From: Halocaridina rubra
Taxonomy: Eukaryota; Arthropoda; Malacostraca; Decapoda; Atyidae
Assembly (NCBI GenBank): GCA_037179515.1
Contig: JAXCGZ010007570.1
Span: 160,001 to 224,000, forward strand
Reading direction: 5' to 3'
Length of the DNA: 64,000 nt
Part shown: positions 2,244-25,307 of the stretch, one piece after another
Layout: each line of letters opens with the position of its first letter
How positions within the stretch are numbered: the stretch's first letter is position 1
The notes under the pieces: model-generated
What the model saw: only the letters and a program-made list of their open reading frames with translations
Told to the model about the DNA's origin: nothing
Databases searched by the model: none
Translations under genes and position numbers: made by a program

Positions 2244-2253
2244 AGTACACATA

Positions 2254-2512: not shown

Positions 2513-2528
2513 TTACACACACACACAG

Positions 2529-2557
<29 letters not shown>
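2513..2557 (+). repeat. (CA)n microsatellite between LINE copies L3 and L4
   Basis: A CA-dinucleotide run continues the 3' tail of L3 (GGTAATTACACACA) and ends exactly where L4 begins. Confidence 0.95.
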
Positions 2558-2559
<2 letters not shown>

Positions 2560-4488
2560 CTGGAAAAGGTATAGGAGGAGAAAAAACATAAATGCCTGGC
2601 AAACCTACAAAAGAGCAAGAAATGACTACCTAAGTAAAAGAAGAGAGGCAGAGAGAGACTATGAGAGGGACATCACCAGGAAGGCTAAAGAAAATCCTAA
2701 GCTTTTCCACAGCTTTATCAGAGGAAAACTGAAGGTAAAAGAACAGGTTTTAAGGCTAAAGAGAGCGGATGGAAGCATCACTGAGACGGATGAAGAGATC
2801 TGCAAAGAATTGAACAAGGAGTTTCAGTCAGTATTTACAGTAGAAAATACCCCACCCCCTCAGATTGCAGTGATAGAAGCTCAAGGGCCGGTATTAGAGA
2901 ACATCAACCTTACAACCACAGAGGTATGCAAAGCGCTGATGGATTTAGATGTTCATAAAGCTACAGGTCCTGATGACATATCCCCTCATGTGCTTAAAAA
3001 ATGCGCAAACACAATATCAGTGGCACTAAGTATCATATTTAAGGAGTCACTGGAGTCGGGGGAGATTCCAAGATGCTGGAAACAAGCAAATGTGATACCT
3101 ATCTTCAAAAAGGGAAGGAGTGATACGGCTCTGAACTATAGACCAGTTTCCTTGACCAGCATAGTTTGCAAAGTTATGGAGAAACTACTAAGGAAACATA
3201 TCTCTCTTCACTTGGAATCCTTCAACTTTTTGTCAGTGAGGCAACATGGCTTCAGAGAAGGTAGATCAACAGTAACAAACTTATTAGAATTTTATGATGA
3301 GGTAAGCCAAATCTTACAGGAAAGAGAGGGCTGGGCAGATTGCATATTCCTAGACTTCCAGAAAGCGTTTGACACTGTTCCACATGGGAGACTTATTAGG
3401 AAGCTGCAATCAATGGCTAGAATAGGTGGAAATGTTTTGGAATGGATAAAAACTTACTTAGAAGGAAGGGAACAGAGGGTTAGAGTAAGACACTCAGTGT
3501 CTGAATGGAGAAGAGTTAGTAGTGGAGTTCCACAGGGTTCAGTTTTAGCGCCACTTTTGTTCCTTGTATATGTAAATGACCTACCAGAGTCTGTAAATTC
3601 ATTCATGAATATGTTTGCAGATGATGCAAAGATTGTGAAGAAAGTAAAAAACGAGAACAATGGTAGAGAACTTCAGGAGGATCTAAATAATCTGCATGAG
3701 TGGTCAGAAAAGTGGCTAATGAAATTCAATACTTCAAAATGTAAGGTAATGAGAATGGGTACAAGTGCAAGAAGGCCCAAGCTTGACTACTCGGTGGCTG
3801 GAGTACAACTTCAAGAGACAGAAAATGAGAGAGATCTAGGAGTAAACATACTGGCAGATTTGTCTCCAGAAATACATATAAATGGCATAGTAAGGGCAGC
3901 ATATGCATTCTTATCAAATGTAAGGGTAGCCTTCAGGCACATGGACAAGGAAATGTTCAGAAATATTTATGTAACCTATGTGAGACCAAAACTGGAATAT
4001 GCAGCCCCCTTTTGGAATCCGCACTTGAAAAAGCACATAGCTAAGCTTGAAAAAGTTCAAAGACATGCCACGAAACTGGTGCCAGAAATACGGAATCTCA
4101 GTTATGATGAGAGGCTGAGGGAATTAGACTTCCCATCACTCGAAGCTAGAAGAGTGAGGGGGGATATGGTGACAGTCTTTAAATTCCTTCATGGTTATGA
4201 TAGAGTGGATAGGGATGGATATTTTGATATGGCTGGCACTAGAGCTAGAGGTCATAGTTTGAAGCTTCGTAAGAAAACTTCTTCGCAGGATGTAAGGAAA
4301 TACTTTTTCAGTGTAAGATTAGTTGATAATTGGAATTGGCTAAGCGAGGAGGTAGTTAATGCTATCTCAATCCATAGTTTTAAGGACAGGTATGATAAGT
4401 ATCACTAAGTCTAAAATGGAACCGATCAGGAGACGGGAAGATACGAGCTTTGGGCTCTTTCCCGTAAACACAATTAGGTAACCAATTA
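2558..4488 (+). mobile_element. LINE copy L4: 5'-truncated but with an open ORF2
   Basis: This copy begins at ORF2 residue ~326 (CWKRYRRRKN) directly after the (CA)n run and is open without a stop to 4408 (TAA). It retains the linker after the endonuclease, the complete reverse transcriptase (FLDFQKAFD, SGVPQGSVL, FADDAKIV) and the C-terminal domain, then the 3' UTR hairpin and tail. The endonuclease is missing, so the protein could not act autonomously. Few substitutions separate it from L12 (for example GPLL to APLL), which suggests a young insertion. Confidence 0.92.
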
Positions 4489-4496
4489 GGTAATCA

Positions 4497-4810
4497 CAGT
4501 CTTTAAATTCCTTCATGGTTATGATAGAGTGGATAGGGATCGATATTTTGCTATGGCTGGCTCTAGAACTAGAGGTCATAGTTTGAAGCTTCGTAAGAAA
4601 ACTTCTTTGCAGGATGTAAGAAAATACTTTTTCAGTGTAAGAGTAGTTGATAATTGGAATTCGCTAAGCGAGGAGGTAGTTAATGCTCTCTCAGTCCATA
4701 GTTTTAAGGACAGGTATGATAAGTATCACTAAGTATAAAATGGAACCGATGAGGAGACGGGAAGATACGAGCTTTGGGCTCTTTCCCGTAAACACAATTA
4801 GGTAATCACA
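4497..4810 (+). mobile_element. LINE copy L5: short 3' fragment
   Basis: It covers ORF2 from residue ~862 (TVFKFLHGYDR) to the stop at 4730-4732, the 3' UTR hairpin, and two units of the tail AATTAGGTAATCAC. It begins immediately after the tail of L4 (ATTAGGTAATCACAG), giving another head-to-tail junction. Confidence 0.9.
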
Positions 4811-5735
4811 ATTAGGTAATTACACCCGGACGGAAGGTTTACGCAACTGCTTCTCTTAAAGTTTTACTTGTGTTTTTGAGTGACTAAGTGCTTAGTGGAA
4901 AACTTTACCATAATTTCCCTAATTCTGAAATCCTGCGGAGTATTGTGAGTGCAAAACTTATATTTGTTGTATGACGAGACTGTCCAAAATATTAAAGGAA
5001 AAAAAATTGAGAACATTTTCGTGAGGGGAGAGAGAAGCTGCTGTCCTGTTTTGCCTTGAAGGAAATTTAGAAGAGTTGCCAGAGGTGAAGCCATCACATC
5101 ACATTACCTAATTTTTTGTGTAAACTGGGGAAAGCTCTTAAGCCGTTTACCTGATCCTGTGGTTCCATATATTGTTAAAATCAGTATCCTTCCCATTTAT
5201 ATTAACATGTTAGTTAGTTTGATACACGAAATAATTGAATAATTAAATAAATACCAAATATCCATCTGTCAACAGTACTGAGTTAAGTTGCCAAGTAGTA
5301 CAGCTGTCTTATTTTCTTCATTTTTTTTGCTTTTCTTTTAGCTTTCTTTTTTACTATTTTTTTTATTTGTGTATATATATTGAGTTAAATGTAAAGTCTA
5401 ATCCTGTGATAACATATCTTGGTTAGTTATTGAGTTTATCAGTTAGGAAGAATATATAGCAGAAACAGGTGGGTGCCTCCTCAGACACAAATTCGAATTT
5501 TCCTTCAGGTTTGACTTTTGTTTTGTTGCATTTTTTCTCTTTATTTTTATCCTTAAATTACCATGGTCAAGTTTTTAAGTTAAGATGTGTGTTACCAGAA
5601 AAGAGATAAATTGAATCACTAAATAGCACTTATATGGAGATATAAAAATTCTGTGTGAACCTTAAATAAAAGTTTTTCTTTTTTTTTTCTCTTTCTCTTC
5701 TTCTTTCTATATTCTGTGAGAGGGAGAACATAAAA

Positions 5736-6817
5736 ATGAGGCCATCTCTGTCCCAAACCTCTCCCATCCATGGGTCGGTAGGAAGGGTAGCCATTAGGAG
5801 ACTTAAACAGAAAATCAAGAAATTTAGAGGCAATGGTTATAAGCCTTGATGAAAAAATTCGGAATATGGATGGAGAAATGAAAGAGAATGAAACACTCAG
5901 AGAGCAAATAAGATCTTTGGAGGAAGCAAATAAAGCACAAGGGCAGGAGAGAAAGGAACTAGAAAAAAGAATAAAGAAGCTGGAAGGGGAAAAGAGTCAA
6001 CTAGAATCTAGAATTTCTAAACAAGAAGATAAAAACAAACAGCTGAATGACAACCTAAAGGAATTAGATGTTAGTTCACTGCTCTCTTCTGAGAGAGACG
6101 AGATTGCTGCTTGGAATGTCCAGATTAAGGAAAACATTGAAGAGTTCAGAAAAGAGTTCCAGGGGCTGAATATGGAAAATGATGCCATGAAAACTTCCTT
6201 TGCTGATGCACTAAAGGGGAATGTGGCAGTAAAAGAGGCTGTAAAGGTGGTGGCACTGGAAAACATACAAACAGTTGACTATAAAGAGACAGTAATCGAA
6301 AAAATGAAAGACGTTGTGATGGAAAGGGCAAACCCACTCATCAGACAGGCACTTGATAAGGAGAAGACAGTGGTAATCTCAGGCATAAGTGAATCCCAGG
6401 AGCCAATATGGCAGGGGAGACTTGAAGAAAATAAAGCTAGGGTTGTAGACCTGATAAGAAAGCTTGGAGTAGTTTGTGGTCCTGAGGATATTGTAAACAT
6501 ACACCAACTAGGTAAATATTTGAGGGAAGGAAAGCCGAGACCAACAAAAGTAACCTTTGAGAGAGGGGAAACATGTAGGGAAATATTGTTGAGAAAAAAA
6601 AAGTATAAAAGACCTTCAAGAATTCAAAGAAGTGTTCATTAGACGATACAGAACACAGGAAGAGATGGGAAAGATCAAAAACTTGTTGCAAGAGGCAAGA
6701 AGGTTAAATGAGGAAAGAAATGAAGAACAGAAGAAAAATTTTCATTTCAGAGTTCTTCCAGACAAAGGGGAGATAAAGAAGATAATGACAGAAGATCAGG
6801 GGATGGGGCCTCATTAA
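5736..6817 (+). pseudogene. Frameshifted LINE ORF1 (coiled-coil/RRM-like RNA-binding protein) of L6
   Basis: This matches the 359-residue ORF1 of L12 almost throughout. A base change series near 5818-5830 destroys the frame after the first ~28 codons; the main body is open 5833-6642, and one or two extra A residues in the poly-A run near 6595-6601 shift the frame again, with the last part open at 6632-6817. The coiled-coil heptads and the VVISGISESQ strand of the RRM-like domain remain readable. The heptamer AAATTTT proposed as a frameshift site in L12 is kept at 6736-6742 in the same phase. Confidence 0.85.
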
Positions 6818-9604
6818 GATTGTTATACACAAATACTGATGGATTAGCTGGTAAGGCAGTAGAATTAAAAGATAGGATTCACAACAGTAAGGCAGATATA
6901 GTAGCAATTACAGAGACTAAGTTAAGTGAGGACATAAACAGTGTCACAGTTTTTCATAAGGGCTTCAGAATACTAAGGGTTGAAAGATCTGAGAGGACTG
7001 GTGGAGGGATAGCACTGCTCATAAGTGAAAGGATTCAAGTTGAAGAAATAAGCTTGGCTATAGAAAGTGAGTTCAAGGAATTTCTTGTTGCTCGCATAAA
7101 TACTGGGTCAAAGAGCATTATAATAGCCGTTGTATACAACCCACCAAGGAACCAAAATAGGCTTGAAGTTTATGAGGAAAGTCATATAGGTACTATTGAA
7201 GTCATAAACTCAGTTGTTAACATGGCACGGGAAAAAAAATGTAGGATTTTGATTATGGGAGACTTTAATCATAAAGAGATAGATTGGAAATCTTGACCCA
7301 CACAGTGGTGAGGACTCATTCGGGGAAAAATTCCTAGATTGCGTACAAGGAAATTTCCTACACCAACATGTAATGGAACCAACAAGGGCAAGGGGTGGGG
7401 ATGAGCCATCACTACTTGATCTAGTGTTCACAAATAATGTGTTGGATATTGAAAAAATTGAGTATGAACCACCAATTGGAAAGAGTGACCACTGTGTGTT
7501 GTTGATGGAGTATATCATTGAAGATATTCTTCCTGAGAGTAGAGGCACTGAGGACATGAGGAGGAACTATCCGAAAGGAGATTACATCAAAATGAATGAG
7601 CTTTTTACAGTTATTGACAAGGAGAACCTTATTTTACAACAAATCTGTACAAGAAATGTATGACATCTTTTGTGAGAAATATGGGAAGATAGTAGATTGC
7701 TGCATACCTGTCACCAAAGTAGGTGTAATTCATGCCAGAGAGAAATGGTTCGATAATGGGTGTAAAAGAGCTAAGGAGTGGAGAGACAAATGCTGGAAAA
7801 GGTATAGGAGGAGAAAAAACATAAATGCCTGGCAAACCTACTAAAGAGCAAGAAATGACTACGTAAGTAAAAGGAGAGAGGCAGAGAGAGACTATGAGAG
7901 GGACATCACCAGGAAGGCTAAAGAAAATCCCAAGCTTTTCCACAGCTTTATCAGAGGAAAACTGAAGGTAAAAGAACAGGTTTTAAGGCTAAAGAGAGCG
8001 GATGGAAGCATCACTGAGACGGATGAAGAGATCTGCAAAGAATTGAACAAGGAGTTTCAGTCTGTATTTACAGTAGAAAATACCCCCACCCCCTCAGATT
8101 GCAGTGATAGAAGCTCAAGGGCCGGTATTAGAGAACATCAACCTTACAACCACAGAGGTATGCAAAGCACTGATGGATTTAGATGTTCATAAAGCTACAG
8201 GTCCTGATGACATATCCCCTCATGTGCTTAAAAAATGCGCAAACTCAATACCAGTGGCACTAAGTATCATATTTAAAAAGTCACTGGAGTCAGGGGAGAT
8301 TCCAAGATGCTGGAAACAAGCAAATGTGATACCTATCTTCAAAAAGGGAAGGAGGGATACGGCTCTGAACTATAGACCAGTTTCCTTGACCAGCATAGTT
8401 TTCAAAGTTATGGAGAATCTACTAAGGAAACATATCTCTCTTCACTTGGAATCCTTCAACTTTTTGTCAGTGAGGCAACATGGCTTCAGAGAAGGTAGAT
8501 CAACAGTAACAAACATATTAGAATTTTATGATGAGGTAAGCCGAATCTTACAGGAAAGAGAGGGCTGGGAAGATTGCATATTCCTAGACTTCCAGAAAGT
8601 GTTTGACACTGTTCCACATGGGAGACTTATTAGGAAGCTGCAATCAATGGCTAGAATAGGTGGAAATGTTTTGGAATGGATAAAAACTTACTTAGAAGGA
8701 AGGGAACAGAGGGTTAGAGTAAGACACTCAGTGGTTCAGTTTTAGCGCCACTTTTATTCCTTGTATATGTAAATGACCTACCAGAGTCTGTAAATTCATT
8801 CATGAATATGTTTGCAGATGATGCAAAGATTGTGAAGAAAGTAAAAAACGAGAACAATGGTAGAGAACTTCAGGAGGATCTAAATAATCTGCATGAGTGG
8901 TCAGAAAAGTGGCTAATGAAATTCAATACTTCAAAATATAAGGTAATGAGAATGGGTACAAGTGCAAGAAGGCCCAAGCTTGACTACTCGGTGGCTGGAG
9001 TACAACTTCAAGAGACAGAAAATGAGACAGATCTAGACGTAAACATACTGGCAGATTTGTCTCCAGAAATACATATAAATGGCATAGTAAGGGCAGCATA
9101 TGCATTCTTATCAAATGTAAGGGTAGCCTTCAGGCACTTGGACAAGGAAATGTTCAGAAATATTTATGTAACCTATGTGAGACCAAAACTGGAATATGCA
9201 GCCTCCTTTTGGAATCCGCACTTGAAAAAGCACATAGCTAAGCTTGAAAAAGTTCAAAGACATGCCACGAAACTGGTGCCAGAAATACGCAATCTCAGTT
9301 ATGATGAGAGGCTGAGGGAATTAGACTTACCATCACTCGAAGCTAGAAGAGTGAGAGGGGGATAAGGTGACAGTCTTTAAATTCCTTCATGGTTATGATA
9401 GAGTGGATAGGGATCGATATTTTGATATGGCAGGCTCTAGAACTAGAGGTCAAAGTTTGAAGCTTCGTAAGTAAACTTATTTGCAGGATGTAAGGAAATA
9501 CTTTTTCAGTGTAAGAGTAGTTGATAATTGGAATTGGCTAAGCGAGGAGGTAGTTAATGCTATCTCAATCCATAGTTTTAAGGACAGGTATGATAAGTAT
9601 CACT
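6818..9604 (+). pseudogene. Multiply disrupted LINE ORF2 (endonuclease-reverse transcriptase) of L6
   Basis: Readable pieces are the endonuclease (6820-7296, with YTNTDGL, ITETKL and GDFNHKEIDW), endonuclease C-terminus (7373-7663, GKSDHCVL), linker (7596-7844), RT palm (8104-8745, FLDFQK) and RT thumb/C-terminus (8802-9365, FADD). They lie in different frames because of the indels listed for L6. No functional product is expected. Confidence 0.88.
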
Positions 9605-9699
9605 AAGTATAAAATGGAACCGATGAGGAGACGGGAAGATACGAGCTTTGGGCTCTTTCCCGTAAACACAATTAGGTAATCACAATGAGGTAATCACAC

Positions 9700-9702
<3 letters not shown>

Positions 9703-9786
<84 letters not shown>
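9703..9786. repeat. (TA)n tract between oppositely oriented LINEs L6 and L7
   Basis: About 84 bp of uninterrupted TA. It separates the tail of L6 (+) from the tail of L7 (-), so two LINE 3' ends face each other across it. Confidence 0.95.
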
Positions 9787-9789
<3 letters not shown>

Positions 9790-9790
<1 letters not shown>

Positions 9791-11502
9791 GTGTGTGTGT
9801 GATTACCTAATTGTGATTACGGGAAAGACCCCAAAGCTCGTATCTTCCTGTCTCCTGATCGGTTCCATTTTATACTTGGTGATACTTATCATACCTGTCC
9901 TTAAAACTATGGATTGAGATAGCATTAACTACCTCCTCGCTTAGCCAATTCCAATTATCAACTACTCTTACACTGAAAAAGTATTTCCTTACATCCTGCA
10001 AAGAAGTTTTCTTTCGAAGCTTCAAACTATGACCTCTAGTTCTAGAGCCAGCCATATCAAAATATCGTTCCCTATCCACTCTATCATAACCATGAAGGAA
10101 TTTAAAGACTGTCACCATATCCCCCCTCACTCTTCTAGCTTCGAGTGATGGTAAGTCTAATTCCCTCAGCCTCTCATCATAACTGAGATTGCGTATTTCT
10201 GGCACCAGTTTCGTGGCAAGTCTTTGAACTTTTTTAAGCTTAGCTATGTGCTTTTTCAAGTGCGGATTCCAAAAGGGGGCTGCATATTCGAGTTTTGGCC
10301 TCACATAGGTTACATAAATATTTCTGAACATTTCCTTGTCCATGTGCCTGAAGGCTACCCTTACATTTGATAAGAATGCATATGCTGCCCTTACTATGCC
10401 ACTTATATGTATTTCTGGAGACAAATCTGCCAGTATGTTTACTCCTAGATCTCTGTCATTTTCTGTCTCTTGAAGTTGTACTCCAGCCACCGAGTAGTCA
10501 AGCTTGGGCCTTCTTGCACTTGTACCCATTCTCACTACCTTACATTTTGAAGTATTGAATTTCATTAGCCACTTTTCTGACCACTCATGCAGATTATTTA
10601 GATCCTTCTGAAGTTCTCTACCATTGTTCTCGTTTTTTACATTCTTCACAATCTTTGCATCATCTGCAAACATATTCATGAATGAATTTACAGACTCTGG
10701 TAGGACATTTACATATACAAGGAACAAGAGTGGCCCTAAAACTGAACCCTGTGGAACTCCACTACTAACTCTTCTCCATTCAGACACTGAGTGTCTTACT
10801 CTAACCCTCTGTTCCCTTCCTTCTAAGTAAGTTTTTATCCATTCCAAGACATTTCCACCTATTCTAGCCATTGATTGCAGCTTCCTAATAAGTCTCCCAT
10901 GTGGAACAGTGTCAAATGCTTTCTGGAAGTCTAGGAATATGCAATCTGCCCAGCCCTCTCTTTCCTGTAAGATTTGGCTTACCTCATCATAAAATTCTAA
11001 TAAGTTTGTTACTGTTGATCTACCTTCTCTGAAGCCATGTTGCCTCACTGACAAAAAGTTGAAGGATTCCAAGTGAAGAGAGATATGTTTCCTTAGTAGT
11101 TTCTCCATAACTTTGCAAACTATGCTGGTCAAGGAAACTGGTCTATAGTTCAGAGCCGTATCCCTCCTTCCCTTTTTGAAGATAGGTATCACATTTGCTT
11201 GTTTCCAGCATCTTGGAATCTCCCCCGACTCCAGTGACTCCTTAAATATGATACTTAGTGCCACTGATATTGTGTTTGCACATTTTTTAAGCAGATGAGG
11301 GGATATGTCATCAGGACCTGTAGCTTTATGAACATCTAAATCCATCAGCGCTTTGCATACCTCTGTGGCTGTAAGGTTGATGTTCTCTAATACCGGCCCT
11401 TGAGGTTCTATCACTGCAATCTGAGGGGGTGGGGTATCTTCTACTGTAAATACTGACTGAAACTCCTTGTTCAATTCTTTGCAGATCTCTTCATCCATCT
11501 CA
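9790..11502 (-). mobile_element. LINE copy L7: 5'-truncated, ORF2 remainder open
   Basis: On the minus strand this runs from ORF2 residue ~401 (DEEICKELNKEF) to the 3' tail at 9790. The 542-codon ORF (9870-11498) has no interruption and includes the RT core with FADDAKIV and the full C-terminal domain; one conserved position in VYVNDLP is changed to VYVNVLP. The endonuclease is absent. Its 5' end on the minus strand abuts a (CA)n run (TG on plus, 11503-11525), which is the tail of L8. Confidence 0.92.
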
Positions 11503-11526
11503 GTGTGTGTGTGTGAGAGTGTGTGA
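11503..11526 (-). repeat. (CA)n run (minus strand) between LINE copies L8 and L7
   Basis: A short TG/AG-containing run on the plus strand equals the extended 3' tail of L8 on the minus strand; L7 begins directly after it. Confidence 0.85.
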
Positions 11527-11775
11527 TTACCTAATTGTGTTTACTTATCATACCTGTCCTTAAAACTGTGGATTCAGATAGTATTAACTACCTCCTCGCT
11601 TAGCGAATTCCAATTATCAACTACGCTTACACTGTAAAAGTATTTCCTTACATCCTGCAGAGATGTTTTATTACGAAGCTTCAAACTATGACATCCAGTT
11701 CTAGAGCCAGCCATATCAAAATACCGACCCCTATCCACTCTATCATAACCATTTAGGAATTTGAAAACTGGATAT
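11523..11775 (-). mobile_element. LINE copy L8: short 3' fragment lacking most of the 3' UTR
   Basis: A minus-strand piece covering the ORF2 end from about residue 866 to the last codons. The sequence jumps from the GATAAG codons into GTAAACACAATTAGGTAATC, so the hairpin part of the 3' UTR is deleted. It carries TAATAAAACATCTC in place of the usual AAGAAAACTTCTT, marking a subfamily also seen in L11. Confidence 0.85.
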
Positions 11776-11788
11776 TTACCGCATTGTG

Positions 11789-14646: not shown

Positions 14647-14647
<1 letters not shown>

Positions 14648-14690
<43 letters not shown>

Positions 14691-14691
14691 T
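14648..14691 (-). repeat. (CA)n(CT)n run (minus strand) between LINE copies L10 and L9
   Basis: TG then AG repeats on plus. Read on minus, the tail of L10 (GGTAATCACTCTCT) leads into CACACA and then into the 5' end of L9. Confidence 0.92.
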
Positions 14692-15290: not shown

Positions 15291-15661
15291 GTGTGTGTAT
15301 ATAAAATCGTATTCACATTCTTGATTATAATTTTACTAACTGGATAATGCTTTGTTGTTTAAAAGGCGACTAAAAGTGGACGGAGCGGGGGGGACTAGGA
15401 ATCCCCCCCCTTGTACCATCCTCCTGTGAGGCATCAAAGAAGAGGGAGAGTAGAGGGGAGTATAACTGCTCCCCAAACTGTTTCTTTTTTTATGTCGGCT
15501 ACCCCCATTTTTAAAGGGGAAACAGCCACGGTATATGTATGTATGTACTATGCCATTAATATGCATTTCTGGAGACAAATCGGCCTGTGTGTGTGTATAT
15601 AAAATCGCATTCACATTCTTGATTATAATTTTACTAACTGGATAATGCTTTGTTGTTTAAA
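15249..15661. repeat. 115-bp direct repeats flanking a small non-autonomous element
   Basis: Positions 15249-15363 and 15547-15661 are near-identical (offset 298 bp; starting ACTATGCCATT and ending near TTTGTTGTTTAAA). They enclose the 183-bp element at 15364-15546. They contain the truncated LINE L10 end, a (TG)n run and flanking unique DNA, so the duplication happened after L10 inserted. Confidence 0.9.
15362..15546 (+). mobile_element. Mini RTE-like element made of 5' and 3' terminal pieces
   Basis: The left part (AGGCGACTAAAAGTGGACGG) resembles the 5' UTR of the RTE-like LINE at 44830; the right part has the 3'-end signature with a CCCC...GGGG hairpin (GGCTACCCCCATTTTTAAAG) followed by ACAGCCACGG and a TATG-rich tail. 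No coding part lies between. I infer an internally deleted, non-autonomous derivative. Confidence 0.5.
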
Positions 15662-16640
15662 CTGATAATGAACTAATCTACTGAATGTTCTGATAGTATT
15701 TTAGTAGAGAAAGAACCTTTGGCTGAAAGCAGGAATTAAAAAGACATCATGATATATTTTTCTTTAATCATTAAATATTTGAGATCTTATATTTTAAAAC
15801 TTTTACGTTCCTCTTGTCATTGTTTTTATTTGGAATGGAAGTCCAGGTACTAACATTTCGCTCCTCAGCGGTACATAGTTTTTATTTTACGTGCTTCATG
15901 CACTCAATAAGGTTTTCTCTAGCGCAAATTAGGGAGTGTGAAAAAGAGGTTCGATTCAGGTCGTTTGGACAACTTTTAGAGCTATTTGGAAATGAAACGG
16001 TTTACGGTAATGTTACTATATTTTTTTAAAAGTTTTGTCGGAATATTGTTTTACACCTAATAAAAAAATGCATTAATTAAAAGTTTCTTACGATTGCAGT
16101 TTTTTAAATGCTATTGGAGGATATTTAATTCATCTATATCGTTTATTTTTTTTCAATCATACATAAATGATAGGTGATTCTTCGTATCACTGCTCTTCCA
16201 TAACATTTTATTTCTTTATATATATGTTTGTTTTTTCATGTGATAATATATGTCAGATACATTTAGCACATGTATTTTCCCAGCTTTTATTAGCCGGAAT
16301 ATAACCTGGAACTTTGTCGACATTTTTTCCTGCATAGGTAGGAGTCTCAAGAACTGTATAATGGAAATCATTTATCCCGAAAACTCTACAAATAGAGGCA
16401 CGGCAACATGATTTATAATATATAATATGGGTTGATAATAATACATTTATTGTGCTCAAGAATACGACGAAATAGTGTCATTTTATGCATCGGAAAATTT
16501 ATTGTTTAAAAGAAATAATAATTAAAAAAAAAAAAAAAATTCCTTATATTCTTGTATAATACAATGAGTACTTTAAGAGTAAGAATAATACAGTTTTCAT
16601 TTCCATTGTTACTCGAGAAATTTTGGTTGAAAATAACGTT
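15662..16640. other. AT-rich unassigned stretch
   Basis: No gene, RNA or repeat family was recognised. Small ORFs here (for example 15814-16029 and 16253-16459) have no recognisable domain and AT-rich, non-coding-like composition. It could be unique intergenic or intronic DNA. Confidence 0.5.
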
Positions 16641-16649
16641 TGGGACTGC

Positions 16650-17060
16650 AGCGACGATCTTCTTTGTCAGTTTTATTAGCCTGTCTTTATATGGGTTCGC
16701 TGTTTTTGTCTCCTGTCATGTTGGTATCCAGGCCTTTCTCTATCATATCGGCTGCTATGCAGTCTTTCCACCTTTTCTTGGGTATTCCTCTCCTCATACC
16801 CTCCACTTCTATATCCATTGCTCTTTTGTCGGCAGTTTCTTCATCACACCTCGTGATGTGCCCATGCCATCAAAGTCTTTCCTTATCTTCGAAACCTCCG
16901 CTACTTTCACTGTTCCTTTGATCCATGCATTGCTAATCCTATCCTCCCTTGTCATGCCACACATCCATCACAACATCCTCATTTCAGCAACTTCCATCCT
17001 ACTCTTGTTTACTGGTCTAACCACAGTGTTGTATACTTTCCCTTTTAATTTTACTTGACA
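16650..17060 (-). pseudogene. C-terminal remnant of another non-LTR retrotransposon reverse transcriptase
   Basis: Read on the minus strand the sequence gives MEVAEMRML, then WMCGMTREDRISNAWIKG, TVKVAEVSK and, after frameshifts, a KRWKDCI-like stretch. This is the typical region C-terminal to the RT (the segment with 'M-R-W-CG-TR-D-I-N--I-G' and 'VQE-RL-WYGH') found in endonuclease-reverse transcriptases of arthropod LINEs. It is not related at sequence level to the CR1-group copies. At least three frame breaks; inactive. The plus-strand ORF over the same bases is a shadow. Confidence 0.7.
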
Positions 17061-17214
17061 TTTTCCTGTCGAACAAAGTACAGCAACGATATTATTCGCA
17101 AATATTCGTAAAAACAATAGCTTTATGATAACAGTTGAAGATGTAATGTTAGAGTGCTAAAATTCTTACCTTGGTTTAGATTAACTCTGCCAAATCTGTA
17201 ATTATAGATTTAAT

Positions 17215-19875
17215 CTGCAAGGTTATAATAACTGTTGTATATAACCCACCAAGGAACCAGAATTGGCTAGAAGTTTATGAGGAAAGTCATATAGGTACTA
17301 TTGAAGTCATAACCTCTGTTGTTAACATGGCACGGGAAAGAATATGTAGGATTTTGATTATGGGAAATTTTAATCATAAGGAGATAGATAGGATAAATCT
17401 TGACCCACACAGTGGTGAGGACTCATTTTGGGCAAGATTCCTATATTGCGTACAAGGGAATTTCCTACACCAACATGTAATGAAACCAACGAGGGCCAAG
17501 GGTGGGGATGAGCCATCACTACTTTATCTAGTATTCCTAGATACTGTGTTGGATATTGAAAAAACTGAGTATGAACCTTCACTTGGAAAGAGTGACCTCT
17601 GTGTGTTGTTGATGGAGTATATCATTGAAGATATTCTGCCTGAGAGTAGAGGCACTGAGGACATGCGGAGGAACTATCCGAAAGGAGATTACATCAAAAT
17701 AAATGAGCTTTTTGCAGTTATTGACTGGAGAACCTTATTTTACAACAAATCTGTACAAGAAATGTATGACATCTTTTGTGAGAAATATGGGAAGATAGTA
17801 GATTGCTGCATACCTTTCACCAAAGTAGGTGTAATTCATGCCAGAGAGAAATGGTTCAATAATGAGTGTAAAAGAGCTAAGGAGTGGAGAGACAAATGCT
17901 GGAAAAGGTATAGGAGGAGAAAAAACATAAATGTCTGGCAAACCTACAAAAGAGCAAGAAATGACTACCTAAGTAAAAGAAGAGAGGCAGAGAGAGACTA
18001 TGAGAGGAACATCACCAGGAAGGCTAAAGAAAACCCCAAGCTTTTCCACAGCTTTATCAGAGGAAAATTGAAGGTAAAAGAACAGGTTTTAAGGCTAAAG
18101 AGAGAGGATGGAAGCATCACTGAGACGGATGAAGAGATCTGCAAAGAATTGAATAAGGAGTTTCAGTCAGTATTTACAGTAGAAATACCCCACCCCCTCA
18201 GATTGCAGAGATAGAGCTCAAGAGCCGGTATTAGAGAACATTAACCTTACAACCACAGAGGTATGCAAAGCGCTGATGGAGTTAGATGTTCATAAAGCTA
18301 CAGGTCCTGATGACATATCCCATCATGTACTTAAAAAGTGCGCAAACTCAATATCAGTGGCACTAAGTATCGTATTTAAAAGGTCACTGGAGTCAGAGGA
18401 GATACCAAGATGCTGGAAACAAGCAAACGTGATACCTATCTTCAAAAAGGGAAGGAGGGATACGGCTCTGAACTATAGACCAGTTTCCTTGACCAGCATA
18501 GTTTGCAAAGTTATGGAGAAACTACTAAGGAAACATATCTCTCTTCACTCGGAATCCTTCAACATTTTGTCAGTGAGGCAACATGGCTTCAGAGAAGGTA
18601 GATCAACAGTAACAAACTTATTAGAATTTTATGATGAGGTAAGCCGAATCTTACAGGAAAGAGAGGCTGGGCAGATTGGATATTCCTAGACTTCCAGAAA
18701 GCATTTGACACTGTTCCACATGGGAGACTTATTAGGAAGCTGCAAGCAATGGCTAGAATAGGTGGGAATGTCTTGGAATTGATAAGGAAACAGAGGGTTA
18801 GAGTAAGACACTCAGTGTCTGAATGGAGAAGAGTTAGTAGTGGAGTTCCACAGGGCTCAGTTTTAGGGCCACTTTTATTCCTTGTATATGCAAATGACCT
18901 ACCAGAGTCTGTAAATTTATTCATGAATATGTCTGCAGATAATGCAAAGATTGTGAAGAAAGTAGGAAACGAGAACATTGGTAGTGAACTTAAGGAAGAT
19001 CTAAATAGTCTGCATGAATGGTCAGAAAAGTGGCTAATGAAATTCAATACTTAAAAATGTAAGGTAATTAGAATGGGTACAAGTGCAAGAAGGCCCAAGC
19101 TTGACTACTTGGTGGCTGGAGTACAACTTCAAGAGACAGAAAATGAGAGAGATCTAGGAGTAAATATACTGGCATTTTTATCTCCAGAAATACATATAAA
19201 TGGCATAGTGAGGGCAGCATATGCCTTCTTATCAAATGTAAGGGTAGCCTTTAGGCACATGGACAAGGAAATCTTCAGAAATATTTATGTAACCTACGTG
19301 AGGCCAAAACTTGAATATGCAGCCCCCTTTTGGAATCCACACTTGGTAAAGCACATAGCTAAGCTTGAAAAAGTTCAAAGACATGCCACGAAACTGGTGC
19401 CAGAAATACGCAATCTCAGTTATGGTGAGAGGCTGAGGGAATTAGACTTACCATCACTCGAAGCTAGAAGATTGAGGGGGATATAGTGACAGTCTTTAAA
19501 TTCCAAAATGGTTATGATAGAGTGGATAGCGATCGATATTTTGATATGGCAGGCTCTAGAACTAGAGGTCATAGTTTGAAGCTTCGTAATAAAACATCTG
19601 CAAAGATGTTTTATTACGAAGCTTCAAACTATGACCTCTAGTTCTAGAGCCAGCCATATCAAAATAGCAGATATCTTTGCAGGATGTAAGGAAATACTTT
19701 TTCAGTGTAAGAGTAGTTGATAATTGGAATTCGCTAAGCGAGGAGGTAGTTAATGATATCTGAATCCATAGTTGTAAGGACAGGTATGATAAGTATCACT
19801 AAGTACAAAATGGAACCAATGGGGAAACGGGAAGATACGAGCTTTGGGCTCTTTACCGTAAACACAATTAGGCAA
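17215..19875 (+). mobile_element. LINE copy L11: 5'-truncated, broken, with internal palindrome
   Basis: This starts at ORF2 residue ~100 (ITVVYNPPRN) and runs to the 3' tail. The endonuclease C-terminus and linker are open at 17327-18214; a lost base near 18186 shifts the frame. RT parts are at 18276-18689 and 18749-19054, with an 18-bp deletion near 18785 and MSADNAKIV in place of MFADDAKIV, and a stop at 19052. The thumb/C-terminus is open at 19073-19486. A 128-bp palindrome is inserted at 19538-19665. Inactive. Confidence 0.9.
19538..19665. repeat. 128-bp near-perfect palindrome inside LINE L11
   Basis: The left arm 19538-19599 (ATTTTGATATGGC...) is the reverse complement of the right arm 19604-19665 with one mismatch (GGCAGG/CCAGCC) and a 4-nt GCAA loop. 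The left arm is normal LINE sequence in sense orientation; the right arm is the same LINE segment inverted. It could form a very stable cruciform or RNA hairpin. Confidence 0.95.
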
Positions 19876-19876
19876 T

Positions 19877-19878
19877 CA

Positions 19879-19962
<84 letters not shown>
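19877..19962 (+). repeat. (CA)n microsatellite between LINE copies L11 and L12
   Basis: About 80 bp of CA follows the tail of L11 (GGCAATCACTCACACA) and lies just before the 5' end of L12, separated from it by TGCATACATACATACA. Confidence 0.95.
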
Positions 19963-19964
<2 letters not shown>

Positions 19965-19984
19965 CATACATACATACACCGCGC

Positions 19985-20899
19985 GTTCAGTGACACACGG
20001 AATTGCTCCTCTTAAATTTCAAAGTTTCGAGTGACTAAAGTGCTTAGTGGAAAACTTTACCATAATTTCCAAAAAAATGAAATCGTGCAGAGTATTGTGA
20101 GTACAAAAACTAATATTTGTTGTAAGGCGAGACTGTTCATATTAAAGGAAAAAAAATTGAGAACTTTTTCGTGAGAAGAGAGAGAAGCTGCCGTCCAGTT
20201 TCTGCCTTGAGGGAAATCTAGAAGAGTTGCCAGACGTGGAGCCTCACACCACATTACCTAATTTTTTGTGTAAACTGGGGAAAGCTCTTGAGCCGTTTTA
20301 CCTGATCCTGTGGTTCTATATATTGTTAAAAACAGTATCCTTCCCATTTATATTAACTAGTTAGTTAGTTTGATACACGAAAAAATTGAATAATAAAAGA
20401 AAAAAAAAATTACCAAATACCCACCCGTCAACAGTACTGAGTTAAGTTGCCAAGTAGTACAGCAGTCCTATTTTCTTCATTTTTTTTTTTTGCTTTTCTT
20501 TTAGCTTTCTCGTTTGCTATTTTGTTATTTTGTATATATATTGAGTTAAATGTAAAGTCTAAATCCCGTGATAACATATCTTGGTTAGCAAGTCAGTTAA
20601 TCAGTTAGGAAGAATATATAACAGAAACAGGTGGGTGCCACCTCGAACACAAATTCGAATTTTCCTTCAGGTTTGACTTTTGTTTTTCTTTTTCTTTTTA
20701 TACGTAAATTACCATGGTCAAGTTTTTAAGTTAAGATGTGTGTTACCAGAAAGGAGACAAACTGAGTCACTAAATAGCACTTATATGGAGATATAAAAAT
20801 TCTGTGTGAAGGTAAATTAGAAGTTTTTCTCTTTTCTTTTCTTTTTTTTTTCCTCTTTCTCGTCTTCTTTCTATATTCTGTGAGAGGGAGAACATAAAA
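19985..20899 (+). promoter_or_regulatory. 5' UTR of LINE L12 (presumed internal promoter region)
   Basis: About 0.9 kb of AT-rich DNA shared with L6 (4826-5735) and containing no long ORF. Full-length LINEs are normally transcribed from a promoter in this region; that role is inferred from family knowledge. I see no obvious TATA box or named element to assign. Confidence 0.45.
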
Positions 20900-21979
20900 A
20901 TGAAGCCATCTCTGTCCCAAACCTCTCCCACCCATGGGTCGGGAGAAGGGGTAGTCATCAGAGGACTTAAACAGAGAATCAAGAAGTTAGAGGAAATGGT
21001 TACAAGCCTTGATGATAAAATTCGGAATATGGATGGAGAAATGAAAGAGAATGAAACACTCAGAGAACAAATAAGATCTTTGGAGGAAGCAAATAAAGCA
21101 CAAGGGCAGGAGAGAAAGGAACTAGAAAAAAGAATAAAGAAGCTGGAAGGGGAAAAGAGTCAACTAGAATCTAGAATTTCTAATCAAGAAGATAAAAACA
21201 AACAGCTAAATGACAACCTAAAGGAATTAGATGTTAGTTCACTGCTATCTTCTGAGAGAGACGAGATTGCTGCTTGGAATGTTCAGATTAAAGAAAACAT
21301 TGAACAGTTCAGAAAAGAGTTCCAGGAGCTGAATATGGAAAATGATGCCATGAAAACGTCCTTTGCTGATGCACTAAAGGGGAATGTGGCAGTAAAAGAG
21401 GCTGTAAAGGTGGTGGCACTGGAAAACATACAAACAGTTGACTATAAAGAGACAGTAATCGAAAAAATGAAAGACGTTGTGATGGAAAGGGCAAACCCAC
21501 TCATCAGACAGGCACTTGATAAGGAGAAGACAGTGGTAATCTCAGGCATAAGTGAATCCCAGGAGCCAACATGGCAGGGGAGACTTGAAGAAAATAAAGC
21601 TAGGGTTGTAGACCTGATAAGAAAGCTTGGAGTAGTATGTGGTCCTGAGGATATTGTAAACATACACCAACTAGGTAAATATTCGAGGGAAGGAAAGCCG
21701 AGACCAACAAAAGTAACCTTTGAGAGAGGGGAGACATGTAGGGAAATATTGTTGAGAAAAAAAAGTCTAAAAGACCTTCAAGAATGCAAAGAAGTGTTCA
21801 TTAGACGATACAGAACACAGGAAGAGATGGGAAAGATCAAAAACTTGTTGCAAGAGGCAAGAAGGTTAAATGATGAAAGAAATGAAGAAGAGAAGAAAAA
21901 TTTTCGTTACGGAATACTTCCAGACAAAGGGGAGATAAAGAAGATAATGACAGAAGATCAGGGGATGGGGCCTCATTAA
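20900..21979 (+). CDS. LINE ORF1 protein: coiled coil plus RRM-like RNA-binding chaperone
   Basis: A 359-residue protein starting at a real ATG. Residues ~20-150 are rich in E/K/L heptads (LEEMVTSLDDKIRNMDGEM, KELEKRIKKLEGEKSQLES) and should form a long coiled coil. Residues ~210-295 look RRM-like: a TVVISGISES strand, a helix with ENKARVVDLIRKLGV, IHQLGK, PRPTKVTFE and REILLRKKSLKD. Residues ~296-345 form a basic C-terminal segment (RRYRTQEEMGKIKNLLQEARRL). That order is the architecture of L1-type ORF1p (trimeric RNA chaperone). No CCHC zinc knuckle or PHD finger is visible. The stop TAA (21977-21979) overlaps the ORF2 frame, which continues one base back. Confidence 0.88.
   Translation: MKPSLSQTSPTHGSGEGVVIRGLKQRIKKLEEMVTSLDDKIRNMDGEMKENETLREQIRSLEEANKAQGQERKELEKRIKKLEGEKSQLESRISNQEDKNKQLNDNLKELDVSSLLSSERDEIAAWNVQIKENIEQFRKEFQELNMENDAMKTSFADALKGNVAVKEAVKVVALENIQTVDYKETVIEKMKDVVMERANPLIRQALDKEKTVVISGISESQEPTWQGRLEENKARVVDLIRKLGVVCGPEDIVNIHQLGKYSREGKPRPTKVTFERGETCREILLRKKSLKDLQECKEVFIRRYRTQEEMGKIKNLLQEARRLNDERNEEEKKNFRYGILPDKGEIKKIMTEDQGMGPH
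21898..21904 (+). promoter_or_regulatory. Candidate -1 ribosomal frameshift heptamer joining ORF1 to ORF2
   Basis: The sequence A AAT TTT, split in the ORF1 frame, fits the X XXY YYZ rule. A -1 slip here enters the ORF2 frame, which is closed upstream by TGA at 21883-21885 and then open all the way to 24804. The same heptamer in the same phase is kept in L6 (6736-6742), although the following bases differ. No ATG occurs in the ORF2 frame between 21886 and the endonuclease. Function is inferred. Confidence 0.45.
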
Positions 21980-21981
21980 GA

Positions 21982-24804
21982 TTGTTATACACAAATGCTG
22001 ATGGATTAGCTGGTAAGGCAGTAGAATTAAAAGATAGGATTCACAACAGTAAGGCAGATATAGTAGCAATTACAGAGACTAAGTTGAGTGAGGACATAAA
22101 CAGTGTCACAGTTTTTCCTAAGGGCTTCAGAATACTAAGGGTCGAAAGATCTGAGAGGACTGGTGGAGGGATAGCACTGCTCATAAGTGAGAGGATTCAA
22201 GTTGAAGAGATAAACTTGGCTATAGAAAGTGAGTTCAGGGAATTTCTTGTTGCTCGCATAAATACTGGGTCAGAGAGCATTATAATAACTGTTGTATACA
22301 ACCCACCAAGGAACCAAAATAGGCTTGAAATTTATGAGGAAAGTCATATAGGTACGATTGAAGTCATAAACTCAGTTGTTAACATGGCGCGGGAGAAAAA
22401 ATGTAGGATTTTGATTATGGGAGACTTTAATCATAAAGAGATAGATTGGATAAATCTTGACCCACACAGTGGTGAGGACTCCTTTGGGGCAAGATTCCTA
22501 GATTGCGTACAAGGGAATTTCCTACACCAACATGTAATGGAACCAACAAGAGCCAGGGGTGGGGATGAGCCATCACTACTTGATCTGGTGTTCACAGATA
22601 ATGTGTTGGATATTGAAAATATTGAGTATGAACCACCAATTGGAAAGAGTGACCACTGTGTGTTGTTGATGGAGTATATCATTGAAGACATTCTTCCTGA
22701 GAGTAGAGGCACTGAGGACATGAGGAGGAACTATCAGAAAGGAGATTACATCAAAATGAATGAGCTTTTTGCAGTTATTGACTGGAGAACCTTATTTTAC
22801 AACAAATCTGTACAAGAAATGTATGACATCTTTTGTGAGAAATATGGGAAGATTGTAGATTGCTGCATACCTGTCACCAAAGTAGGTGTAATTCATGCCA
22901 GAGAGAAATGGTTCGATAATGGGTGTAAAAGAGCTAAGGAGTGGAGAGACAAATGCTGGAAAAGGTATAGGAGGAGAAAAAACATAAATGCCTGGCAAAC
23001 CTACAAAAGAGCAAGAAATGACTACCTAAGTAAAAGGAGAGAGGCAGAGAAAGATTATGAGAGGGACATCACCAGGAAGGCGAAAGAAAATCCCAAGCTT
23101 TTCCACAGCTTTATCAGAGGAAAACTGAAGGTAAAAGAACAGGTTTTAAGGCTAAAGAGAGCGGATGGAAGCATCACTGAGACGGACGAAGAGATCTGCA
23201 AAGAATTGAACAAGGAGTTTCAGTCAGTATTTACAGTAGAAAATACCCCACCCCCTCAGATTGCAGTGATAGAAGCTCAAGGGCCGGTATTAGAGAACAT
23301 CAACCTTACAGCCACAGAGGTATGCAAAGCGCTGATGGATTTAGATGTTCATAAAGCTACAGGTCCTGATGACATATCCCCTCATGTGCTTAAAAAATGC
23401 GCAAACACAATATCAGTGGCACTAAGTATCATATTTAAGGAGTCATTGGAGTCGGGGGAGATTCCAAGATGCTGGAAACAAGCAAATGTGATACCTATCT
23501 TCAAAAAGGGAAGGAGGGATACGGCTCTGAACTATAGACCAGTTTCCTTGACCAGCATAGTTTGCAAAGTTATGGAGAAACTACTAAGGAAACATATCTC
23601 TCTTCACTTGGAATCCTTCAACTTTTTGTCAGTGAGGCAACATGGCTTCAGAGAAGGAAGATCAACAGTAACAAACTTATTAGAATTTTATGATGAGGTA
23701 AGCCAAATCTTACAGGAAAGAGAGGGCTGGGCAGATTGCATATTCCTAGACTTCCAGAAAGCGTTTGACACTGTTCCACATGGGAGACTTATTAGGAAGC
23801 TGCAATCAATGGCTAGAATAGGTGGAAATGTCTTGGAATGGATAAAAACTTACTTAGAAGGAAGGGAACAGAGGGTTAGAGTAAGACACTCAGTGTCTGA
23901 ATGGAGAAGAGTTAGTAGTGGAGTTCCACAGGGTTCAGTTTTAGGGCCACTTTTGTTCCTTGTATATGTAAATGACCTACCAGAGTCTGTAAATTCATTC
24001 ATGAATATGTTTGCAGATGATGCAAAGATTGTGAAGAAAGTAAAAAACGAGAACAATGGTAGAGAACTTCAGGAGGATCTAAATAATCTGCATGAGTGGT
24101 CAGAAAAGTGGCTAATGAAATTCAATACCTCAAAATGTAAGGTAATGAGAATGGGTACAAGTGCAAGAAGGCCCAAGCTTGACTACTCGGTGGCTGGAGT
24201 ACAACTTCAGGAGACAGAAAATGAGAGAGATCTAGGAGTAAACATATTGGCAGATTTGTCTCCAGAAATACATATAAATGGCGTAGTAAGGGCAGCATAT
24301 GCATTCTTATCAAATGTAAGGGTAGCCTTCAGGCACATGGACAAGGAAATGTTCAGAAATATTTATGTAACCTATGTGAGGCCAAAACTCGAATATGCAG
24401 CCCCCTTTTGGAATCCGCACTTGAAAAAGCACATAGCTAAGCTTGAAAAAGTTCAAAGACATGCCACGAAACTGGTGCCAGAAATACGCAATCTCGGTTA
24501 TGATGAGAGGCTGAGGGAATTAGACTTGCCATCACTCGAAGCTAGAAGAGTAAGGGGGGATATGGTGACAGTCTTTAAATTCCTTCATGGTTATGATAGA
24601 GTGGATAGGGATCGATATTTCGATATGGGTGGCTCTAGAACTAGAGGTCATAGTTTGAAGCTTCGGAAGAAAACTTGTTTGCAGGATGTAAGGAAATACT
24701 TTTTCAGTGTAAGAGTAGTTGATAATTGGAATTCGCTAAGCGAGGAGGTAGTTAATGCTACCTCAATCCATAGTTTTAAGGACAGGTATGATAAGTATCA
24801 CTAA
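21982..24804 (+). CDS. LINE ORF2: APE-type endonuclease plus reverse transcriptase (intact)
   Basis: A 940-residue frame counted from the TTG at 21982; there is no ATG start (the first ATG lies inside the endonuclease at residue 135), and the frame is open back to 21886. Endonuclease (1-230): YTNADGL with N5, ITETKL with E32, RTGGGIALL, VVYNPP, MGDFNHKEIDW with D148/N150, LVFT and GKSDHCVL with S223-D224-H225. Basic linker 300-400. RT (490-720): VIPIFKKG, NYRPVSLTS, RQHGFREGRST, FLDFQKAFD with D590, SGVPQGSVLGPLLF, FADD with D679/D680, WLMKFNTSKC. The C-terminal domain 735-940 is typical of the CR1 group. It nicks target DNA and reverse-transcribes the element RNA. No RNase H domain is present. 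Confidence 0.93.
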   Translation: MLYTNADGLAGKAVELKDRIHNSKADIVAITETKLSEDINSVTVFPKGFRILRVERSERTGGGIALLISERIQVEEINLAIESEFREFLVARINTGSESIIITVVYNPPRNQNRLEIYEESHIGTIEVINSVVNMAREKKCRILIMGDFNHKEIDWINLDPHSGEDSFGARFLDCVQGNFLHQHVMEPTRARGGDEPSLLDLVFTDNVLDIENIEYEPPIGKSDHCVLLMEYIIEDILPESRGTEDMRRNYQKGDYIKMNELFAVIDWRTLFYNKSVQEMYDIFCEKYGKIVDCCIPVTKVGVIHAREKWFDNGCKRAKEWRDKCWKRYRRRKNINAWQTYKRARNDYLSKRREAEKDYERDITRKAKENPKLFHSFIRGKLKVKEQVLRLKRADGSITETDEEICKELNKEFQSVFTVENTPPPQIAVIEAQGPVLENINLTATEVCKALMDLDVHKATGPDDISPHVLKKCANTISVALSIIFKESLESGEIPRCWKQANVIPIFKKGRRDTALNYRPVSLTSIVCKVMEKLLRKHISLHLESFNFLSVRQHGFREGRSTVTNLLEFYDEVSQILQEREGWADCIFLDFQKAFDTVPHGRLIRKLQSMARIGGNVLEWIKTYLEGREQRVRVRHSVSEWRRVSSGVPQGSVLGPLLFLVYVNDLPESVNSFMNMFADDAKIVKKVKNENNGRELQEDLNNLHEWSEKWLMKFNTSKCKVMRMGTSARRPKLDYSVAGVQLQETENERDLGVNILADLSPEIHINGVVRAAYAFLSNVRVAFRHMDKEMFRNIYVTYVRPKLEYAAPFWNPHLKKHIAKLEKVQRHATKLVPEIRNLGYDERLRELDLPSLEARRVRGDMVTVFKFLHGYDRVDRDRYFDMGGSRTRGHSLKLRKKTCLQDVRKYFFSVRVVDNWNSLSEEVVNATSIHSFKDRYDKYH

Positions 24805-24829
24805 GTCTAAAAATGGAACCGATCAGGAG

Positions 24830-24862
24830 ACGGGAAGATACGAGCTTTGGGCTCTTTCCCGT
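24830..24862 (+). promoter_or_regulatory. Conserved hairpin in the LINE 3' UTR (likely RT recognition element)
   Basis: The outer stem ACGGGAA (24830-24836) pairs with TTCCCGT (24856-24862), and the inner stem GAGC (24842-24845) pairs with GCTC (24851-24854) around the loop TTTGG. Nearly every copy in the window ends with this structure about 35 bp before the tail. By analogy with other LINEs, it probably marks the RNA for its own reverse transcriptase. Confidence 0.65.
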
Positions 24863-24892
24863 AAACACAATTAGGTAATCACAATTAGGTAA

Positions 24893-24914
24893 TCACACAC
24901 ACACACACACACAC
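24893..24914 (+). repeat. (CA)n run between LINE copies L12 and L13
   Basis: CA repeat continuing the tail of L12 (GGTAATCACACACA); L13 begins directly after it. Confidence 0.95.
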
Positions 24915-25307
24915 AGCCCCCTTTTCGAATCCACACTTGAGAAAGCACATAAATAAGTTGGAAAAAGTTCAGAGGCATGCCACAAAACTGGTGCTAAAAA
25001 TACGAAATCTCAGTTATGAGGAGAGGCTGAGTGAATTTAGATTTGCCATCACACGAAGCTAAACTAATGAGGGGGGATATGGTTACGGTTTTTGAATTCC
25101 TTCATGGTTTTAACCGTGTGGGTAGGGATCGATATTTTCGATATGGCTGGCTCTAGAACTAGAGGTCATAGTTTGGAGCTTCGGAAGAAAACTTCTTTGC
25201 AGGATGTAAGGAAGTACATTTTTAGTGTAAGAGTAGTTGATAATTAGAATTTGCTAAGTGAGGAGGTAGTTAATGCTAATTCAATTCAAAGTTTTAAGAA
25301 AAAGTAT
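24915..25307 (+). mobile_element. LINE copy L13: old 3' fragment of ORF2
   Basis: This starts at ORF2 residue ~807 (APFSNPHL-like) and stops near residue 935 (SFKKKYG) where it is fused to the tandem array at 25308. Several indels and a stop (GATAATTAGAATTTG) show age. No 3' UTR or tail is present, so its 3' end was lost at the array junction. Confidence 0.85.

What the first reader, a model, noticed from the sequence alone, without database searches (positions are those of the whole stretch)
2513..24915. CR1-group LINE forms head-to-tail arrays anchored in (CA)n, with fixed strand
In at least eight copies (L4, L7, L9, L10, L12, L13, L14, L16) the 5'-truncated end lies directly at, or within ~20 bp of, a (CA)n run on the element's own sense strand, and most 3' tails (AATTAGGTAATCACA) also run into CA. 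Ten junctions join the tail of one copy to the 5' end of the next (L1-L2-L3-L4-L5-L6 on plus; L10-L9-L8-L7 on minus; L11-L12-L13 on plus). Microsatellite-targeting LINEs are known (Waldo/Mino into AC repeats, Dong into TAA), as are telomeric head-to-tail LINEs. For a CR1-group element whose own tail resembles its target, this would be self-targeting: each insertion creates the site for the next. L17 is an exception (no CA flank).
Basis: partly seen in the sequence, partly recalled or inferred. Interest (0 to 1): 0.8.

Follow-up and report, generated by a model that had tools for sequence, protein, structure and literature searches.

The report
CA-repeat-seeking LINE builds self-made arrays
In a Hawaiian shrimp genome, a copy-and-paste jumping element lands far more often than chance in CA repeats, facing the same way, and because its own tail ends in CA its copies pile up head to tail and some piles seem to have grown into satellite DNA.

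Summary
In the window 7 of 16 readable 5' ends have a pure sense CA run of 8 bp or more within 20 bp, none has TG; 0 of 9115 shifts match this. All ten head-to-tail junctions exist, but two are copies of one event. In 87 other loci of the assembly, 44 of 121 distinct 5' ends have sense CA, 0 antisense; background 0.39%. With no LINE within 800 bp upstream: 9 of 28. For one element word the assembly holds 850+195 matches with CA upstream, none with TG, and 174 matches joining a tail to it. Array neighbours are mostly separate insertions; some arrays have become satellites. CA is a preference, not a fixed target: 36 of 51 isolated copies lack it. Best reading: an APE-type LINE whose tail (AATCACA) primes on TG strands, so insertions recreate their own target. 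The mechanism is inferred, the CR1-group label untested, and reads were not available.

The parts
1..696 (+). copy c1, 3' part, cut by window edge
   Evidence: BLAST
701..2244 (+). copy c2, 5'-truncated; junction with c1 duplicated at c2/c3
2249..2517 (+). copy c3, 5'-truncated at the same point as c2 and internally deleted
2515..2557 (+). (CA)n between c3 tail and c4
4496..4824 (+). copy c5, joined directly to the c4 tail
4825..9698 (+). copy c6, full-length with broken frames, joined directly to the c5 tail
9695..9801 (.). compound (CA)n(AT)n(TG)n between the tails of c6 and c7, tail to tail
11522..11770 (-). copy c8
14650..14678 (-). (CA)n on the minus strand between the c10 tail and c9
17223..19879 (+). 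copy c11 with an inverted repeat of itself at 19594-19666; no CA at 5' end
19881..19962 (+). (CA)41 between c11 tail and c14
20900..21979 (+). ORF1 of c14, 359 aa; no Pfam family above its cut-off, weak matches to coiled-coil families, no CCHC pattern
21982..24804 (+). ORF2 of c14, 940 aa: APE-type endonuclease and reverse transcriptase; no ATG near its start
24830..24862 (+). 3' stem-loop just before the tail (predicted)
   Evidence: z only -1.1 on c14, no compensatory pairs
24861..24897 (+). tail: 14-bp unit repeated, ending AATCACA
24894..24915 (+). (CA)11 between c14 tail and c15

Best explanation
An APE-type LINE, probably still active (one full-length copy with both frames open), inserts preferentially into (CA)n lying on its own sense strand. 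Likely mechanism: the endonuclease nicks the TG strand. The RNA tail, repeats of a 14-base unit ending AATCACA, pairs with the TG-ended primer and reverse transcription starts there. The 5' end of the usually incomplete copy is then joined to CA on the other side, often at a CA already present in the element. CA (or the tail's own CACA) is left on one or both sides, so the site is regenerated and the next copy enters in the same direction, giving head-to-tail arrays of different ages. Unequal exchange later turns some arrays into satellites. Shown: the CA excess, its strand, the head-to-tail rule, independence and different ages of most neighbours tested. Suggested: breaks recurring at CA. Inferred: the nick, the tail-target pairing, how the 5' end is joined, and exchange as the satellite maker.
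For: Window: 7 of 16 5' ends sense CA, 0 antisense, 0 of 9115 shifts equal it. Genome: 44 of 121 against 0 of 121, background 0.39%, positive in each of three query sets. No LINE within 800 bp upstream: 9 of 28 against 0; two of the nine (L055, L097) sit in CA tracts of roughly 100 bp or more with interruptions, which look older than the insert. Whole-assembly patterns: 850 forward + 195 reverse matches with CA upstream of one element word, 0 + 0 with TG, although CA is about equally common on both strands (445357 and 432390 placements). CA tracts of 12 bp or more next to copies agree with the strand rule 79 times, disagree twice. 65 of 71 distinct junctions within 150 bp are same-strand, 57 tail to 5' end, in 38 of 87 loci. 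Private substitutions fall 6.1, 3.2, 3.1, 1.0% along c10-c9-c8-c7, and c14 (0.3%) sits between c11 (2.4%) and c15 (6.6%). Of 28 neighbour pairs with different truncation only 1 are closest relatives; 1 of 17 if I drop by hand the contigs held by overlapping loci. Hand count of the 100 listed places: 34 of 68 contigs break exactly at one of three CA dinucleotides; 5 of 33 positions there would qualify.
Against: 36 of 51 isolated copies have no CA run of 8 bp or more at the 5' end. Of 43 isolated copies with both ends readable, 25 have CA on neither side, 13 on one side only and 5 on both, whereas insertion in the middle of a tract should leave both. Target-site duplications outside repeats are hardly above chance (4 of 24 with 5 bp or more, shuffled mean 2.3), except one clear case of 15 bp at a site without CA (L080). 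One of the nine CA-flanked copies without a LINE upstream (L065) has a run of N about 100 bp upstream. The assembly could not be checked against reads.
Confidence: 0.77

Rival explanations
1. CA tracts are made by the element (tail slippage), insertion is otherwise near random, and arrays arise because new copies enter CA tails.
For: Tails run straight into CA: 35 of 117 distinct 3' ends with CA of 8 bp or more within 30 bp, 1 with TG. RTE elements are reported to generate microsatellites by slippage at the 3' end (PMC2887409, abstract). Penaeid TEs are reported as SSR carriers (PMC7878876, abstract and passages).
Against: It does not explain CA at the 5' end of copies with no LINE within 800 bp upstream (9 of 28).
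Confidence: 0.1
2. The arrays are segmental duplications or products of recombination between CA tracts, not repeated insertion.
For: c1/c2 and c2/c3 share a junction. True tandem arrays exist: a 493-bp unit on C8955, a two-LINE unit on C1722, a CA-LINE junction listed 30 times on C638.
Against: 27 of 28 neighbour pairs with different truncation points are not closest relatives (16 of 17 without contigs held by overlapping loci). Only 6 of 57 distinct head-to-tail junctions repeat the upstream copy's truncation point (these counts are after merging identical junctions). The CA excess at isolated copies remains unexplained.
Confidence: 0.06
3. Template jumping: several RNAs are copied end to end in one event.
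For: 13 of 57 distinct head-to-tail junctions have a gap of 5 bp or less; full-length c6 follows the c5 tail with no extra base. End-to-end jumping by the R2 enzyme is cited in PMC6740152 and PMC2718515 (passages).
Against: Neighbours differ strongly in private substitutions in two of the window's arrays; 28 of 57 junctions hold a CA run of 8 bp or more; the strand rule at isolated copies is unexplained.
Confidence: 0.04
4. Assembly artefact: contigs misjoined at CA tracts or LINE copies.
For: CA tracts and a LINE with thousands of candidates (2991) are hard to assemble; reads were not available.
Against: Direct tail-to-element junctions without CA exist (13 of 57 with a gap of 5 bp or less). 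Copies with no LINE within 800 bp show the same strand rule.
Confidence: 0.03

Closest known systems
Waldo and Mino (R1-clade LINEs inserting into AC repeats)
   Same: APE-type LINE with AC/CA microsatellites as target; Mino into AC repeats is stated in PMC3124438 (passages); Waldo recalled
   Different: Here a preference of about 30% at isolated copies, and neither ORF carries the CCHC motifs recalled for R1-clade proteins
Togen (NeSL clade, (TG)n-specific in fish)
   Same: Microsatellite of the same composition (PMC4640811, passages)
   Different: That clade has a restriction-like endonuclease (same paper, introduction read); this element has an APE-type one
Tandem R1 arrays in Drosophila rDNA
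   Same: Head-to-tail LINE arrays explained by insertion into the target duplication at the 5' end of a resident copy (PMC2718515, passages)
   Different: One fixed 28S site there; here CA tracts and the element's own tail on many contigs
Telomeric LINEs (HeT-A/TART, SART/TRAS)
   Same: Head-to-tail stacking (recalled; PMC10088271 seen only in the listing)
   Different: CA at the junctions, not a telomere repeat; no (TTAGG)3 in the window and one in 87 loci
RTE elements that seed microsatellites in Lepidoptera
   Same: LINE 3' ends tied to microsatellites (PMC2887409, abstract)
   Different: There the repeat is made at the 3' end by slippage; here CA is also at the 5' end of isolated copies

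Membership tests
APE-type non-LTR retrotransposon (LINE) | APE-like endonuclease plus reverse transcriptase in one frame | tested here: met
   PF14529, PF03372 and PF00078 on ORF2 of c14
APE-type non-LTR retrotransposon (LINE) | frequent 5' truncation with a constant 3' end | tested here: met
   Distinct 5' ends spread over element positions 1-4851 with the same tail in 13 aligned window copies
CR1 group | reverse transcriptase falls in the CR1 group of a tree with named references | not testable with these tools
   Homologues found bear no clade names; the label rests on recalled C-terminal motifs and tail type
CR1 group | 3' end of short tandem units instead of poly(A) (recalled) | tested here: met
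   14-bp unit repeats at tails; not exclusive to the group
R1 clade (Waldo/Mino) | CCHC motifs in ORF1 and at the ORF2 C-terminus (recalled) | tested here: not met
   No such pattern in either ORF of c14
R1 clade (Waldo/Mino) | near-exclusive insertion into the target repeat (recalled) | tested here: not met
   15 of 51 isolated copies
NeSL clade (Togen) | restriction-like endonuclease | tested here: not met
   APE-type domains found, no other nuclease family in the Pfam scan at E 0.001
Telomeric LINE | insertion into telomere repeats | tested here: not met
   CA at junctions; no (TTAGG)3 in the window, one in 87 loci
Microsatellite-targeting LINE (works like) | excess of the repeat at both ends, on a fixed strand, over background | tested here: met
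   (background measured for the 5' side)
Microsatellite-targeting LINE (works like) | nicking of the repeat by the element's endonuclease | not testable with these tools
   needs a biochemical assay

The most novel reading that the evidence does not exclude
An APE-type LINE outside the R1 and Tx1 clades whose RNA tail doubles as its address: tail and target share CACA, so every insertion makes a new site beside itself. One family thereby multiplies CA tracts, builds one-way arrays throughout a 1.2-Gb genome and feeds them into new satellite DNA.
Probability: 0.4. Interest if true: 0.75.

Novelty: new variant of a known kind. Interest (0 to 1): 0.66.

Why it matters
[quoted passage not shown] Here tail and target do match, with thousands of candidate copies to test on. 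It also offers a stepwise route, visible at different stages in one genome, from a mobile element to satellite DNA, and may link LINE activity to the microsatellite load of shrimp genomes. In the listings of my ten paper searches I saw no report of this element or of a CR1-group LINE with a CA target; the listings are capped, and subscription papers and Repbase were not searched.

Tried and rejected
Other collections gave no usable relatives: tail patterns in viral contigs, 0. ORF2 in viral contigs, 0, and with the alignment none confirmed of 16 stretches. Prokaryote genome contigs first none, then ten distant relatives at 23-31% identity, not used. Phages none, plasmids one distant hit. Reading CA flanks from translated homologues: no TH or CV runs of three units in 256 proteins. 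Tail strings in papers: none. A genome search with the 3' end of c14 returned 0 matches although the window itself holds it; the tool skips very common words.

The 3' stem-loop is not strong evidence: z -1.1 on one copy and no compensatory pairs in 13 copies. Target duplications outside repeats were not clearly above chance, except L080. A general microsatellite preference was considered and not favoured: (AT)-type flanks at isolated 5' ends are 5 of 52, near the background share of period-2 repeats of 9.9%; by that looser rule pure C+A flanks are also only 5 of 52, and repeats of any kind 14 of 52 against a background of 12.7%.

Dropped rows: L011, L041 and L071 are the window itself and were left out of genome counts. 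Duplicate junctions were merged by truncation point and 15 bases of flank. Flanks of N were dropped; still counts one (7 of 27; 7 of 26). The forward count holds several starts per tract; its reverse count includes at least 30 places on the C638 satellite. One search counts some junctions twice where the tail unit is doubled, and its listed places include satellites (C8094, C834). My hand count uses the 100 listed of 174 matches, one vote per contig and type; relatedness between contigs was not removed. In one search, 11 of the 28 pairs lie on contigs held by overlapping loci, which makes a foreign copy look close; without them it is 1 of 17. Loci were the top-scoring matches of three queries, not a random sample. 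The mirror test for opposite-strand neighbours did not complete.

Full report
What it is. The window holds at least 17 copies of one LINE and its older relatives. Copy c14 (19990-24897) is full-length with both frames open: ORF1 of 359 aa without a Pfam family above cut-off, ORF2 of 940 aa with APE-type endonuclease and reverse transcriptase. All 16 ORF1 homologues found are from Halocaridina rubra, up to 100% identical over the matched parts, so the window is from that atyid shrimp or one very close; the assembly searched has 1.18 Gb in 21031 contigs. The element ends in a predicted hairpin, weakly supported, and a 14-bp unit present once or twice and ending AATCACA.

The observation. With a strict rule, 7 of 16 5' ends have a sense CA run of 8 bp or more within 20 bp, none has antisense TG; sliding the whole set of copies along the window never reaches 7 (0 of 9115 shifts, maximum 3). 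Among copies without a LINE just upstream it is 3 of 6, again never matched by shifts (maximum 2). Controls: GA/TC runs lie near copy ends once in 28, AT runs 4 in 27, CA/TG runs 14 in 17.

Test beyond the window. Three queries brought 87 loci besides the window. Of 121 distinct 5' ends 44 have sense CA, none antisense; by set 12 of 29, 16 of 42 and 16 of 51, the last set, from a query on an older copy, being fetched after the rule was fixed. Isolated 5' ends: 15 of 51 against a background of 0.39% per strand. With no LINE within 800 bp upstream: 9 of 28; two of the nine lie in interrupted CA tracts of roughly 100 bp or more. Two exact patterns over the whole assembly settle the strand for one element word near the 3' end: CA within 30 bp upstream matches 850 + 195 times, TG upstream 0 + 0 times, although both strands carry CA about equally. 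The forward number counts one tract several times, and the reverse number includes at least 30 places on one satellite contig, so neither is a count of insertions.

Arrays. 71 distinct junctions within 150 bp: 65 same-strand, 57 of them tail to 5' end, in 38 of 87 loci; 13 have a gap of at most 5 bp, 28 hold a CA run of 8 bp or more. At the one stretch tested by pattern there are 174 tail-to-element matches in the assembly, some counted twice and some in satellites. Most neighbours tested are separate insertions: in the window private substitutions order c10, c9, c8, c7 from old to young (c9 and c8 about equal) and place young c14 between older c11 and c15, and c4's nearest relatives are c17 and c14, not its neighbour c5. 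Across loci 27 of 28 pairs with different truncation are not closest relatives, 16 of 17 when contigs held by overlapping loci are dropped. Duplication also happens: the c1-c2-c3 junction, a 493-bp satellite on C8955, a two-LINE unit repeated on C1722, and 30 listed near-identical CA-LINE junctions on C638.

How it works, most likely. Target-primed reverse transcription (established for LINEs) with the RNA tail pairing to a TG-ended primer puts the element in CA with sense CA on its strand and leaves CA behind. The base-resolved junctions suggest that the 5' end is joined through CA as well: by hand count 34 of 68 contigs in the 100 listed places break at one of three CA dinucleotides, where 5 of 33 positions would do so by chance. 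Relatedness between contigs was not removed, so this is suggestive. The nick and the pairing are inference. CA is not required: 36 of 51 isolated copies lack a run, only 5 of 43 have CA on both sides, and L080 has a 15-bp duplication and no CA.

Known or new. CA/TG microsatellites are targets of Mino (R1; PMC3124438) and Togen (NeSL; PMC4640811). R1 arrays in Drosophila grow by insertion into the duplicated target (PMC2718515), the nearest precedent for the array mechanism. This element has an APE-type nuclease and lacks the CCHC motifs recalled for R1 proteins. New here, as far as my capped searches show, are the match between tail and target, the one-way arrays over many contigs and their passage into satellites. 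I call it a new variant of a known kind. CR1-group membership stays untested.

Noticed in passing
25308-27712: A 274-bp tandem repeat of about 9 units begins where old copy c15 is cut off; by eye its unit has a relative near 30450.
   Followed up: no
37491-43138, 61928-63150: DDE_1 transposase fragments at 37491-37961, 41794-42495 and 42401-43138, Tigger/pogo-like by recall, with long (TA)n tracts beside element ends, as if inserted into TA repeats; similar ends near 62020 by eye.
   Followed up: partly
50407-51327: Host gene: NAD(P)H-hydrate dehydratase (Carb_kinase) open frame on plus.
   Followed up: partly
20900-21979: Halocaridina rubra gene models carry pieces of this LINE's ORF1 cut at the same places (after ...KEAVK in four, after ...NLKELD in three of the ten read), as if splice sites inside ORF1 were used; probably annotation, possibly exonisation.
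   Followed up: no
21886-21990: ORF2 has no ATG near its start; its frame is open upstream and overlaps the end of ORF1, so its translation start is unclear.
   Followed up: no
G000:C638:24306-45676: Thirty listed near-identical CA-LINE junctions, apparently a LINE-derived satellite, with two junctions on opposite strands at 45573-45676.
   Followed up: no
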